A DNA stretch of 64,000 nt from Geodermatophilus telluris (GTDB taxonomy: Bacteria > Actinomycetota > Actinomycetes > Mycobacteriales > Geodermatophilaceae). Below the pieces are notes generated by a model. The model was not told the origin of the DNA. It was given only the letters and a program-made list of their open reading frames with translations, and ran no database searches. Positions 36,415 to 40,335 of the stretch are shown piece by piece. Positions within the stretch are counted from its first letter, which is position 1. Each line of letters opens with the position of its first letter. The translations under genes and the position numbers were made by a program. Location of the stretch: the NCBI RefSeq assembly GCF_900102745.1, contig NZ_FMZF01000001.1, forward strand, positions 620,001-684,000. Reading direction: 5' to 3'.

Positions 36415-37221
36415 GTGCAGGACGTCCCCCCGGAGGTCGCTCCCGACTTCGCCCGCGAGTGGGTCGAGTTCCCCGACCCGGCCGACCCGCGGCACGTCGT
36501 CCGCGCGGACCTCACCTGGCTGGCCTCGGCCTGGACGTGCGTGTACGGCCGCGGCTGCGCGGGCGTCGTCCCCGGCCGGCCCGACGACGGCTGCTGCAGC
36601 CACGGCGCCTTCTTCAGCGACGAGGACGACCTGCTGCGGGTCACCGCCGCCGTCGCCGACCTCGCCGACGAGGACTGGCAGCTCGCCCCGGTGGCCCGCG
36701 GCGCCTGGACCGAGGAGGACTCGGCCGACGACGAGGGCGGTGTCCGCTCCCTCCGCACCCGCCTCGTCGACGGCGCCTGCGTGTTCCTCAACCGGCCCGG
36801 CTTCCCCGGCGGCAGCGGGTGCGCGCTGCACCGGATGGCGCTGCGCGAGGACCTGCACCCGCTGACCACCAAGCCCGACGTCTGCTGGCAGCTGCCGGTG
36901 CGCCGGGAGCAGGAGGAGGTCGAGCGGCCCGACGGCAGCACCGTCCTGGTGAGCACGATCGGCGAGTTCGACCGCCGCGGCTGGGGTCCCGGCGGCGCCG
37001 ACCTGCACTGGTGGTGCACCGGCTCCCCCGCCGCGCACGTCTCCCCCGAACCGCTGGTCCTCACCTACGGCCCGGAGCTCACCGCGCTGCTCGGCCCGGC
37101 CGCCTACGCCGAGCTGCGCCGGCTGACCGAGGCCCGGCTCGACCTGGGGCTCGTGGCCCCGCACCCCGCCAGCCCGGCCCCGGTGCCGCTCACCCTGTCC
37201 CGGCGCCGGCCGGCCGGCTGA
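36415..37221 (+). CDS. Conserved cysteine-rich protein (Rv0495c-like)
   Basis: A 268-residue soluble protein. Cysteines at 42, 48, 60 and 61 (WTCVYGRGC and GCCSHGAFF), then in [24 protein letters not shown] and HWWCTG, form a pattern like a metal- or Fe-S-binding cluster domain such as YkgJ-type proteins. It appears equivalent to Rv0495c, whose function I do not know. Start: GTG at 36415, 6 bases after a TAGGCT -10 element (36403-36408), so leaderless. It is divergent from ppx. Confidence 0.78.
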
Positions 37222-37315
37222 GCGCGACGCCCCCGGCGGGGACGAGAGGGGCCTGCCGGAGCGGTCCGGCCACTAGCCTGCTCCCGACGACCGCGACGAC
37301 CGGACGGCGAGGACA

Positions 37316-39475
37316 GTGAGCGACCGACAGGCGAGCGCGGGCGCGCACCCGGCGGAGCCGTCGGCCGGCGGCCGCGCGCCGGACAGCGCACTGCGGGCGC
37401 TGGTGCGCATCCCGGTGTTCCGGCGGCTGTGGGCGGCCGTCGCCGTCTCCAGCCTGGGCGACTGGCTCGGCCTGCTGGCCACCACGGCGATGGCCGCGCA
37501 GCTCACCGCCGACGAGTCGACGGCGGTGCAGGGCGCGGCGATCTCCGGGGTCATCCTCACCCGCCTGCTGCCCGACCTGCTGCTCGGCCCGCTCGCCGGC
37601 GCGCTGGCCGACCGGCTCGACCGGCGCACCACCGTCGTCGTCGGCGAGCTGCTGGCCGCGGGGCTGTACCTGTCGATCGCGGTCAGCTACGAGCTGACCT
37701 GGCTCTACGTCGCCCAGTTCCTCGTCGAGGCGGTCGGGTTGTTCACCAACCCGGCCAAGCAGGCGATCTGGGTGGCGATCGTGCCGCGGGAGCGGCTGGC
37801 GGTGGCCAACCAGGTGTCGCTGTTCAGCGTCTACGGCGCCGTGCCGGTGGCCTCGCTGCTGTTCGCGCTGCTGTCCACCGTCAGCCGGGTCTTCCCGGGC
37901 GCCGGGGACGGCGGCGACGTGCGGACGGCGATCGTCGTCGCGCTGGTGTTCAACGCGACCAGTTTCGGCGTCTCGGCCACCACCGTGCTGCTCTCCCGCC
38001 GGCTGATCCCGCCCACGGCCACCGACCGCGAGACGCCGGCCAACGTCTTCTCGCTGGTGGTCGAGGGCGTCTCCTTCCTCCGCGGCCAGCCGCTGATGCG
38101 CGCGCTCTACGTCGGGGTCATCGGCGCGTTCGGGGCCGGCGGCCTGATCATCGGCGTCGCCCAGCTCTACATCGCCACCCTCGACGCCGGCGCGGCCGGC
38201 TACGGCGTGGTCTTCGGCATCGTCTTCACCGGGCTGGCGCTGGGCATGCTCACCGGCCCGCGCATCCTGCCCACGGTCCCGCGGCGCACGCTGTTCGCCC
38301 GCTCGATCGGGCTGGCCGGGGTGGCGCTGCTGGCCATGTCGCTGCTGCAGGAGTTCGTGCTGGCCGCGGCCGCGGCGTTCCTCGTCGGCCTGTTCGCCGG
38401 GGTCTCCTGGATCATCGGCTACACGCTGATCGGCTTCGAGGTCGAGGACCGGCTGCGCGGGCGGGTGTTCGCCTTCGTCATCTCCTCGGTGCGCATCGTG
38501 CTGCTGCTCGCCGTCGCCGTCGGCCCGGGGCTGGCCGGCCTGCTCGGCACGCACGAGCTGCGCGTCGGCGCGCTGGTGCTCAGCCTCACCGGTCCCGGTC
38601 TGACGCTGCTGGTGGGCGGCGTCCTCGCCCTGCTGGTCAGCGCCTATGCCGTCCGGCAGGTGGCGCCGCGCGGCCGCTCGCGCACCCGGCTGCGCGACCT
38701 GCTGCGGCTGCTGTGGGGCAGCTCGGACATCCTCTCGGCCTCCTCCAGCGACACCGGCCTGTTCGTCGTCGTCGAGGGCGCCGACCGCGACCTCACCCGC
38801 CGCTACACCGCCGACCTCGCGCGGGTGCTGCGCGACGGCGGCTGCCCGGTCGTGGCCACCCACGAGCCCAGCGACACCGCGCTGGGCCGGCAGGTGCGCC
38901 AGCTGCTCTACCCCCCGGCGCCCGCGGCCGGCCGGTCGGTGACCGACGGCGAGGGCCACCCGGTCGCCGCCTACACCGCGGCGCTGCTGGCGGCTGCCGA
39001 CCGCGCCGAGCACGTGGCCACGGTGATCCGGCCGGCCCTGCAGCGGCGCGAGGTCGTGGTGTGCAACCACTACGTGGACACCTCGATCGCCTTCCACGGC
39101 GCCGGGCAGGGTCTCGACGCCGACCGCATCTTCCGCACCTCGCTGTGGGCCACCCGCGGCCTGCTGCCCGACCTCACCGTCGTCGTCGACTCACCGGTGA
39201 CCGTGGGGCCCGACGGTGCCGACGCCGACGCCGTCCGGGCCGCGTTCCTCGCGCAGGCCGAGGCCGCACCCGACCGCTACGTCGTCGTCCCCGGGGAGCT
39301 GCTGGGCACCGATCCCGGCGGCCTGGTATCCGACGTCGTCCGGCGGCGGATCACCGCGCTGCTCACCCAGCGCTACCCGGAGTCGGGCGAGACGCGGTCC
39401 GACGGCGCCGCCGGGGCGGCCGACCCGCCGGTGGGCGCAGCGCGCACGGGCGCCGGGGGCGGCTCCGTACGCTGA
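37316..39475 (+). CDS. MFS transporter fused to a degenerate thymidylate-kinase-like domain
   Basis: A 719-residue fusion. Residues 25-450 are an MFS permease with about 12 helices (FRRLWAAVAVSSLGDWLGLL at the start, the loop ADRLDRRTTVV). Residues 480-690 align by eye with dTMP kinase, but the P-loop, normally GxDGxGKST, reads EGADRDLTRRY (487-497) with no glycine-lysine; TREPGGT is THEPSDT (515-521); and the catalytic DRY is NHY (584-586). DRAEHVATVIRPAL before it is well kept. So the second half is probably a pseudo-enzyme with a binding or sensing role. Transporter-thymidylate kinase fusions are known in other actinobacteria. It starts GTG at 37316; no close ribosome site. Confidence 0.82.
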   Translation: MSDRQASAGAHPAEPSAGGRAPDSALRALVRIPVFRRLWAAVAVSSLGDWLGLLATTAMAAQLTADESTAVQGAAISGVILTRLLPDLLLGPLAGALADRLDRRTTVVVGELLAAGLYLSIAVSYELTWLYVAQFLVEAVGLFTNPAKQAIWVAIVPRERLAVANQVSLFSVYGAVPVASLLFALLSTVSRVFPGAGDGGDVRTAIVVALVFNATSFGVSATTVLLSRRLIPPTATDRETPANVFSLVVEGVSFLRGQPLMRALYVGVIGAFGAGGLIIGVAQLYIATLDAGAAGYGVVFGIVFTGLALGMLTGPRILPTVPRRTLFARSIGLAGVALLAMSLLQEFVLAAAAAFLVGLFAGVSWIIGYTLIGFEVEDRLRGRVFAFVISSVRIVLLLAVAVGPGLAGLLGTHELRVGALVLSLTGPGLTLLVGGVLALLVSAYAVRQVAPRGRSRTRLRDLLRLLWGSSDILSASSSDTGLFVVVEGADRDLTRRYTADLARVLRDGGCPVVATHEPSDTALGRQVRQLLYPPAPAAGRSVTDGEGHPVAAYTAALLAAADRAEHVATVIRPALQRREVVVCNHYVDTSIAFHGAGQGLDADRIFRTSLWATRGLLPDLTVVVDSPVTVGPDGADADAVRAAFLAQAEAAPDRYVVVPGELLGTDPGGLVSDVVRRRITALLTQRYPESGETRSDGAAGAADPPVGAARTGAGGGSVR

Positions 39476-39480
39476 CCGCC

Positions 39481-40335
39481 GTGACTGCCGCGGTGACTCC
39501 TCCCCCGCCGACGTGGACGGCCGAGGACACCGAGGAGGTCGACTGCTGCCTCTGCGGCGTGCCCGGCCGGCCGGTGCACGACCTCGACCCCTTCGCCGTG
39601 GTCCGCTGCCCGCGGTGCGGCCTGGTCTTCGTCAGCCCCCGGCTGCGGCCCGAGGCGCTGCAGCGGCTCTACGACGACGTCGGCTACTTCGAGGGCGGCG
39701 TGTACGGCGGCGCCGTCGAGGGCGGGGCCGCGCAGGAGGGCCGCCGGTTCGACCCCGCGATGCTGCTGCAGCGCACCTGGACGGCGGGCCGGCTCGCGCT
39801 GCTCGACCGGGTGCGCGGCCGCGGCCCCGGCGGACGGCTGCTGGAGGTCGGCGCCGGGTACGGCCTGTTCCTCGACGCCGCCCGGCGGCACGGGTGGCAC
39901 ACCAGCGGGGTCGAGCTGTCCCGCACCGGCGCGGAGCACGCCACCGACGTGCTCGGCCTCGACGTCTTCTGCGGCCAGCTCGCCGACGCGCCGCTGGAGC
40001 CGGGCTTCGACGTCGTCTGCGCGTGGGACACCGTCGAGCACGTGCCCGACCCGCTCGAGTTCTGGCGCACGGCCCGCTCGCTGGTGGCCGACGACGGCGT
40101 CGTCCTCTTCTCCACGCCCTACGTGTCGTCGCTGCCGGCGCGGCTGCTGGGCACCCGCTGGTGGACGCTCAAGCCCGCCGAGCACATCTGGCACTTCACC
40201 CCGCGCACCCACGCGGTGCTGCTCGCCCGCGCCGGGCTGGCGCTCACCCAGGTCGTGCGCAGCCCGCTGGCGGCGGCCAACGCCGGCCGGCTGGACAGCC
40301 TGGTCGGCGTCGCCCGCCCCGTGCCCCTGAGCTGA
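39481..40335 (+). CDS. Class I SAM-dependent methyltransferase with N-terminal zinc-ribbon-like motif
   Basis: A 284-residue protein. The N-terminus carries CCLCG and RCPRCGLVF, a four-cysteine motif like a small zinc ribbon. The SAM motif is LLEVGAGYGLFLDAA near residue 120, with AWDTVEHVPDPLEF as motif post-I. This layout is common in Methyltransf_23/11 proteins that act on sugars or lipids. Substrate unknown. The GTG at 39481 follows TACGCT (39468-39473) by 7 bases, and that -10 overlaps the end of the upstream MFS-fusion gene, so it can be transcribed alone as a leaderless message. Confidence 0.87.
   Translation: MTAAVTPPPPTWTAEDTEEVDCCLCGVPGRPVHDLDPFAVVRCPRCGLVFVSPRLRPEALQRLYDDVGYFEGGVYGGAVEGGAAQEGRRFDPAMLLQRTWTAGRLALLDRVRGRGPGGRLLEVGAGYGLFLDAARRHGWHTSGVELSRTGAEHATDVLGLDVFCGQLADAPLEPGFDVVCAWDTVEHVPDPLEFWRTARSLVADDGVVLFSTPYVSSLPARLLGTRWWTLKPAEHIWHFTPRTHAVLLARAGLALTQVVRSPLAAANAGRLDSLVGVARPVPLS

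What the first reader, a model, noticed from the sequence alone, without database searches (positions are those of the whole stretch)
37316..39475. MFS transporter fused to a thymidylate-kinase domain that has lost its catalytic motifs
The C-terminal 210 residues keep the shape of dTMP kinase (DRAEHVATVIRPAL, THEP, GAGQGL), yet the P-loop glycine-lysine-serine-threonine is replaced by DRDLTRRY at 490-497, and the DRY motif by NHY at 584-586. A kinase domain kept at full length without its catalytic residues, and joined to a 12-helix transporter, suggests a nucleotide-sensing or regulatory domain on an exporter. The fusion type is known in other actinobacteria; whether they are also degenerate I cannot tell. 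This is the best candidate here for an undescribed system.
Basis: partly seen in the sequence, partly recalled or inferred. Interest (0 to 1): 0.75.

Follow-up and report, generated by a model that had tools for sequence, protein, structure and literature searches.

The report
Transporter carrying a dead kinase domain
A soil bacterium's membrane transporter carries a nearly full-length copy of a DNA-precursor enzyme (thymidylate kinase) that has lost the parts it needs for catalysis; similar decay occurred in other bacterial lineages that have a second kinase, and the dead domain was kept, which suggests that it serves the transporter rather than chemistry.

Summary
ORF 37316-39475 (719 aa; [quoted passage not shown] It is no frameshift: all 25 genus members with this form, the window's included, share it. 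The genome has a separate canonical tmk beside holB.

Most MFS-TMK fusions elsewhere keep their P-loop. In an order-level sample 57 of 91 do, and 42 of those 57 are the genome's only TMK match; 34 lost it, and all 34 genomes have another TMK. Loss occurred in three lineages. The dead domain is kept: median dN/dS equals that of the real Tmk among nine close congeners, and none of 68 degenerate proteins lacks it. The transporter half keeps its motifs.

Best reading: with another kinase present, the fused TMK became a pseudoenzyme, retained as a folded module of the transporter (assembly or allostery). Nine paper searches showed me no description of it. Substrate, function and the order of events are untested.

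The parts
37309..37313 (+). GAGGA, likely ribosome-binding site of the fusion gene
   Evidence: sequence
37316..39475 (+). MFS / pseudo-thymidylate-kinase fusion, 719 aa, GTG start
   Evidence: 24 other genus members at 78-96% identity
37403..38665 (+). MFS transporter half (aa 30-450), about 12 helices; motif-A charges D99, D102, R103, R104 conserved
   Evidence: Pfam; AlphaFold2; conservation
38666..38749 (+). linker (aa 451-478), mostly low model confidence
38750..39385 (+). pseudo-TMK domain (aa 479-690), TMK fold
   Evidence: PF02223 66.4 bits; Foldseek to P. aeruginosa TMK entries 4edh and 4gmd, TMt 0.79-0.86
38774..38806 (+). former P-loop, EGADRDLTRRY (aa 487-497); Lys and Ser of GKST replaced by Thr and Arg
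38909..38968 (+). variable insert (about aa 532-551) absent from the active TMKs aligned
   Evidence: alignment; conservation 0.61
38990..38992 (+). Ala559 in place of the Tyr/Phe that precedes AADR in active domains
39065..39073 (+). NHY (aa 584-586) in place of DRY/DRF
39188..39250 (+). place of the largely deleted LID with its arginine (about aa 625-645)
39481..40335 (+). downstream SAM methyltransferase gene (PF13489), GTG 5 nt after the fusion's stop; conserved neighbour
36415..37221 (+). upstream gene of unknown family, conserved neighbour in the genus
   Evidence: no Pfam or NCBIfam hit

Best explanation
This is an MFS transporter bearing a pseudoenzyme, related to the active MFS-Tmk fusion that many Actinomycetes encode between topA and holB. 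With another Tmk covering dTMP phosphorylation, the fused domain lost its P-loop, LID, DRX motif and an aromatic of the presumed dTMP pocket. It was not deleted because the MFS half has its own function and still needs the folded domain. Most likely mechanism: the TMK fold, typically a dimer in known TMKs, serves as a cytoplasmic assembly or allosteric module that stabilises or pairs the transporters. Shown here: motif loss, a second Tmk, recurrence, retention, selection. Inferred: no kinase activity (about 95%), service to the transporter rather than an independent function (about 65%), dimerisation as the specific role (about 35%). That the backup came first is assumed, not shown. The transported substrate is unknown.
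For: Motif loss: of 70 columns at least 90% conserved in 139 domains counted as active, 16 of 16 P-loop/DRX/LID columns are lost in the 25 genus members against 9 of 54 others (Fisher 8e-10); B1 outside the genus 16 of 16 against 27 of 54, B2 12 of 16 against 21 of 54, B3 10 of 16 against 10 of 54. The domain is below NCBI's dTMP-kinase cut-off (72.3 against 83.25 bits); the genome's own Tmk scores 153.4, one intact fusion 181.9. Backup: 34 of 34 P-loop-less fusions of the order sample lie in genomes with another PF02223 match at E<=1e-10; 42 of 57 intact fusions are the only match. Recurrence: two separate clades, 100/100 each; a third in f30. Retention: median dN/dS 0.271 (pseudo-TMK), 0.269 (own Tmk), 0.218 (MFS), 36 pairs; in f15 0.177 against MFS 0.26 (21 pairs) and 0.146 against 0.135 (3 pairs). 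Former P-loop conservation 0.95 against 0.86 for the domain; 49 MFS residues the same at 90% or more in A, B1 and B2. Locus: topA-fusion-holB in intact relatives, topA-dead fusion-methyltransferase-tmk-holB in two Geodermatophilaceae MAGs. Fold kept in models; f15, at modest confidence.
Against: Over all 300 genus pairs the pseudo-TMK is looser than the MFS (dN/dS 0.384 against 0.262). Across B1 only 22 of 202 TMK columns stay at least 90% conserved, against 94 of 202 in intact fusions; f4 is very divergent, and G136 of f15 has lost its DRX segment: this also fits slow erosion. The whole gene is dispensable in places: 5 of 16 sampled f4 genomes have no fusion match. B1 is a separate clade and not sister to the intact fusions of the same family, so ancient duplication or transfer is possible. 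Nothing bears directly on dimerisation or on contact with the MFS half. dN/dS is Nei-Gojobori on GC-rich codons; the genomes counted are related, so the Fisher tests overstate.
Confidence: 0.62

Rival explanations
1. Nucleotide-sensing regulatory domain: the dead kinase still binds dTMP or another nucleotide and gates transport.
For: Arg563 (AADR) and the EP loop are kept in 25 of 25 genus members; two MAG relatives (G032, G034) keep the aromatic, RY and QGAGR while lacking P-loop and LID; f15 keeps the DRX Arg in 13 of 14.
Against: The aromatic present in 139 of 139 domains counted as active is lost in 44 of 46 B1, 14 of 14 B2 and 8 of 8 B3; the DRX Arg is His in 25 of 25 genus members; the Walker Lys is absent in 68 of 68.
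Confidence: 0.16
2. Docking platform: the pseudo-TMK pairs with the cell's real Tmk and brings it to the membrane.
For: Known TMKs are typically dimers (PMC3169407, passages); fusion and real tmk are adjacent in f3 and close together in some Geodermatophilaceae MAGs.
Against: In the window's genome tmk lies on another contig. One f15 and one f30 example, and by sequence one f4 protein, are of the distant mycobacterial type, an unlikely partner, yet the domain is kept there.
Confidence: 0.12
3. Neutral relic: the C-terminal half is decaying and only the MFS matters.
For: Faster change than the MFS over the whole genus, strong divergence in f4, deletion in G136.
Against: Selection equal to the real Tmk in nine close congeners; nine ex-P-loop residues are invariant in 25 of 25, five of them with synonymous changes; none of 68 degenerate proteins read lacks the domain; three lineages keep it.
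Confidence: 0.1
4. Still an enzyme, with other chemistry or a relocated lysine, for example using Arg491, Arg495 or Arg496.
For: The former P-loop is highly conserved (0.95); three f30 proteins have Arg for Lys in an otherwise kept P-loop.
Against: P-loop, DRX and LID columns are all lost in this genus.
Confidence: 0.05

Closest known systems
Active MFS-TMK fusion of Actinomycetes (class A here; e.g. Nonomuraea, Streptosporangium, Quadrisphaera)
   Same: Same two-domain architecture, 49 shared MFS residues, TMK fold; same locus as degenerate fusions of a Nakamurella and of Geodermatophilaceae MAGs
   Different: P-loop, DRX and LID intact; in the order sample the only PF02223 match in 42 of 57 genomes
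Bacterial dTMP kinase (PF02223, TIGR00041; P. aeruginosa 4edh, T. thermophilus 5x7j)
   Same: Fold (TMt 0.79-0.86 for 4edh and 4gmd chains) at 33-36% identity
   Different: No Walker lysine, no DR, no LID; below the TIGR00041 cut-off
Pseudomonas putida tmk broken by a genomic island whose dNMPK took over (PMC10653934; abstract and outline seen)
   Same: Essential kinase activity covered by another gene while the old tmk is disabled
   Different: There the old tmk is a disrupted pseudogene; here the dead domain stays under selection and attached to a transporter
EntS / MFS_3 type exporters (PF05977, NF007792)
   Same: Weak profile matches (29.2 bits to PF05977, over its cut-off of 27; 29.3 bits to EntS)
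   Different: Far below the EntS cut-off of 324 bits; no solved relative found by sequence (best E 0.45, unrelated)

Membership tests
dTMP kinase | TMK fold | tested here: met
   PF02223 66.4 bits; Foldseek of the model, E 1.7e-9
dTMP kinase | P-loop GX4GK(S/T) | tested here: not met
   Lys in 0 of 25 genus members
dTMP kinase | DRX motif | tested here: not met
   NHY, THY or SHY in 25 of 25
dTMP kinase | LID with catalytic arginine (type II, as PMC3169407 describes) | tested here: not met
   LID columns gapped or replaced
dTMP kinase | NCBI equivalog score TIGR00041, 83.25 bits or more | tested here: not met
   72.3 for the domain, 68.5 for the whole protein
dTMP kinase | Enzyme activity | not testable with these tools
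   needs an assay
MFS-TMK fusion | MFS followed by a TMK fold in one chain | tested here: met
MFS-TMK fusion | Supplies the genome's only TMK | tested here: not met
   second, canonical Tmk at C3:400834-401394
MFS-TMK fusion | Lies between topA and holB | tested here: not met
   neighbours here are Ppx/GppA, an unknown gene and a methyltransferase; the slot is kept in relatives
MFS transporter | 12-helix fold with motif A | tested here: met
   PF07690 51.5 bits; helices; D99, D102, R103, R104
MFS transporter | Transport activity and substrate | not testable with these tools
   needs an assay

The most novel reading that the evidence does not exclude
The TMK fold has a second, non-catalytic job in all MFS-TMK fusions, active ones too: it is a built-in assembly or gating subunit of the transporter. 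When another kinase covers dTMP phosphorylation, only the chemistry is lost, and the domain lives on as a pseudoenzyme. At least three lineages have run this experiment, and one family (f30) shows intermediate states.
Probability: 0.33. Interest if true: 0.75.

Novelty: new variant of a known kind. Interest (0 to 1): 0.52.

Why it matters
It offers a natural series for how an essential enzyme domain becomes a pseudoenzyme: intact, pocket altered with Lys kept, Lys to Arg, fully dead. A second PF02223 gene is present in every f30 genome of the series. It gives a testable reason why a dTMP kinase is fused to a transporter at all, and warns against annotating these proteins as dTMP kinases.

Tried and rejected
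Frameshift or chance similarity: rejected. Family-wide degeneracy: rejected; most fusions keep the P-loop. A single loss: rejected. A fixed order of decay: rejected. In B1 two MAGs kept the aromatic after losing the P-loop, whereas in f30 three proteins lost the aromatic with Lys still present. So in f30 function may have gone once although the lysine changed three times. 'Backup kinase first': not shown. In the one intact f30 genome (G165) the second gene that I read is of another kind, while six other f30 genomes have the mycobacterial type.

Literature: nine searches, seen as listings; passages of PMC3169407, PMC8679000 and PMC3711429; abstract and outline of PMC10653934. Nothing I saw describes an MFS-TMK fusion. 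PMC3711429 lists a thymidylate kinase translational-coupling cluster, not followed. A sequence search for a solved relative of the MFS half found nothing.

Rows dropped: L002, L035, L036 and L038 as duplicates; 29 of 122 fusion rows left out of the tree as near-copies; 23 of those 93 rows, including the two long rows G040 and G041, left out, where 17 intact class-sample loci were named and 14 entered. In one search the mis-parsed rows cls_L349 and cls_L360 were removed before counting (both intact), 3 of 79 class-sample loci were not parsed, and four f30 rows with Lys kept were set aside; with these four counted as active, the aromatic would be in 140 of 143. G159, G195 and G246 are cut by contig ends and were not fetched; G020 is cut by a contig end.

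Full report
What is there. The frame 37316-39475 encodes 719 aa with a GTG start behind GAGGA. The first half is an MFS transporter (PF07690), the second a thymidylate-kinase fold (PF02223, 62.2 bits). AlphaFold2 on an alignment of 32 lineage-B1 proteins (mean pLDDT 81.8) gives about 12 membrane helices and a TMK domain mostly near 90, joined by a low-confidence linker. Foldseek's best solved match is P. aeruginosa TMK. The nearest named relatives are Geodermatophilus tzadiensis and G. dictyosporus at 96%; the window's own record is unnamed.

Degeneration is real and specific. The alignment puts EGADRDLTRRY against EGGEGTGKSTQ of the genome's own Tmk without a gap, NHY against DRY, and mostly gaps against the LID. 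Of 70 columns at least 90% conserved among 139 domains counted as active (124 P-loop-intact fusions and 15 stand-alone Tmks), all 16 in P-loop, DRX and LID are lost in the 25 genus members, against 9 of 54 elsewhere; the bias is weaker in the other degenerate groups. The Tyr/Phe before AADR, present in 139 of 139, is Ala in 25 of 25. The domain fails the NCBI dTMP-kinase cut-off, which the genome's own Tmk and one intact fusion pass.

The kinase function lies elsewhere. The same genome has a canonical Tmk (GGEGTGKST, DRY) on another contig, followed by a frame that I read as holB from its sequence. All 25 genomes of the genus with the degenerate fusion, the window's included, have a separate TMK match. 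In a quick tree the stand-alone Tmks of the nine genus members placed group with the fused, active TMKs of other Geodermatophilaceae (SH-aLRT 90).

How general it is. In an order-level sample of 120 genomes, 91 have a fusion match at E<=1e-40, one each: 57 with intact P-loop, 20 in degenerate lineage B1 (the window's), 14 in B2 (family f15). Another PF02223 match at E<=1e-10 exists in 34 of 34 genomes with a degenerate fusion and in 15 of 57 with an intact one (counted by hand; Fisher 1.4e-13, not corrected for kinship). In a class-level sample 84 of 148 genomes have a match; of 79 further loci read, 71 keep the P-loop and 8, all in family f30, do not. Among 79 named loci found with a query built from B1, hence biased to it, 38 lack the P-loop (33 Geodermatophilaceae records, three Nakamurella, one unclassified actinobacterial MAG, one Jatrophihabitans MAG) and 41 have it. 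The codes f15 and f30 are unnamed.

How often it arose. On the MFS tree (93 rows, TMK columns left out) the P-loop-less rows form two separate clades, each 100/100, and none of 200 bootstrap trees makes them one. Adding f30 (quick tree, 96 rows, SH-aLRT only) needs at least five changes, three of them inside f30; they are losses if the lysine is never regained. In f30 one sees intact (G165), Lys kept but aromatic lost and LID altered (G221, G209, G265), Lys to Arg (G183, G281, G248) and full loss (G197, G257, G230, G239, G273). All 12 f30 genomes have a second PF02223 match; six of those read have the mycobacterial-type Tmk. One f15 and one f30 example score 269 and 256 bits for NF005923 (cut-off 193); one f4 protein looks the same by sequence. 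In f3 and G072 the second Tmk lies next to the fusion, in three Geodermatophilaceae MAGs shortly after it.

Where it came from. In 37 of 41 named intact loci topA and holB lie on either side of the fusion within the fetched stretch; two degenerate loci (L240, L241) show the same, and two Geodermatophilaceae MAGs read topA - dead fusion - methyltransferase - tmk - holB (L228, L237). By position the dead fusion descends from the old tmk locus. Against simple descent, B1 is not sister to the intact fusions of the same family. In Geodermatophilus it sits between an unknown gene and the methyltransferase.

It is kept. Over 36 pairs among nine congeners, median dN/dS is 0.271 for the dead domain, 0.269 for the active Tmk of the same genomes, 0.218 for the MFS. 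Residues E487, G488, A489, D490, R491, L493, T494, R496 and Y497 are invariant in 25 of 25, five of them with synonymous codon changes. The 46 B1 and 14 B2 proteins all keep the domain (shortest 169 residues, G136), as do the 8 B3 proteins. Against this: over all 300 genus pairs the domain is looser than the MFS (0.384 against 0.262); across B1 only 22 of 202 columns stay at least 90% conserved; and 5 of 16 sampled f4 genomes lack the whole gene.

How it works, most likely. The MFS half keeps 49 residues, among them D49, K148 and motif-A charges, the same at 90% or more in intact, B1 and B2 fusions, so it probably has its own function apart from kinase chemistry. TMKs are typically dimers (PMC3169407). 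I therefore favour an assembly or allosteric module for the transporter. Sensing is less likely because pocket residues are lost as well as the ATP site, though Arg563 and the EP loop remain. A tether for the real Tmk is less likely where that Tmk is of the distant mycobacterial type. None of these roles is tested.

Novelty. The active fusion is, from recall, known to genome annotation; nine paper searches showed me no description of it or of its dead form. It is a new variant of a known kind.

Changes made on checking: confidence in the best explanation went from 0.65 to 0.62 and the novel case from 0.35 to 0.33, because the order of events is not shown and the whole gene is absent in some f4 genomes; sensing and relic were raised by 0.01 and 0.02.

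Noticed in passing
window 36415-37221: 268-aa gene with a Cys-rich start and no Pfam or NCBIfam hit, conserved upstream of the dead fusion in the genus and in Blastococcus and Trujillonella records.
   Followed up: partly
window 39481-40335: SAM methyltransferase gene starting 5 nt after the fusion's stop; its homologue sits between the dead fusion and tmk-holB in Geodermatophilaceae MAGs.
   Followed up: partly
L063 (G020): A genome labelled same genus has a P-loop-intact fusion, cut by a contig end, and no other TMK match, instead of a dead fusion plus stand-alone tmk; a swap or a mislabelled genome.
   Followed up: no
G028, G101, G108, G138, G147 (Geodermatophilaceae g4): No fusion match and one TMK match each; for G028 it is a stand-alone Tmk. 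The transporter half was lost there or never linked.
   Followed up: no
L336, L331, L320 (f30): Walker lysine replaced by arginine in an otherwise kept P-loop, GAEGAGRST or GIEGAGRTT; residual activity would be worth testing.
   Followed up: partly
L168 (f15 G136): Degenerate domain that has lost its DRX segment by deletion.
   Followed up: no
L384 (G165), L385 (G183), L089 (G050): Further TMK homologues with a GP(S/G/A)GxGK(S/T) P-loop, neither the fused nor the mycobacterial type; kind and function unknown.
   Followed up: no
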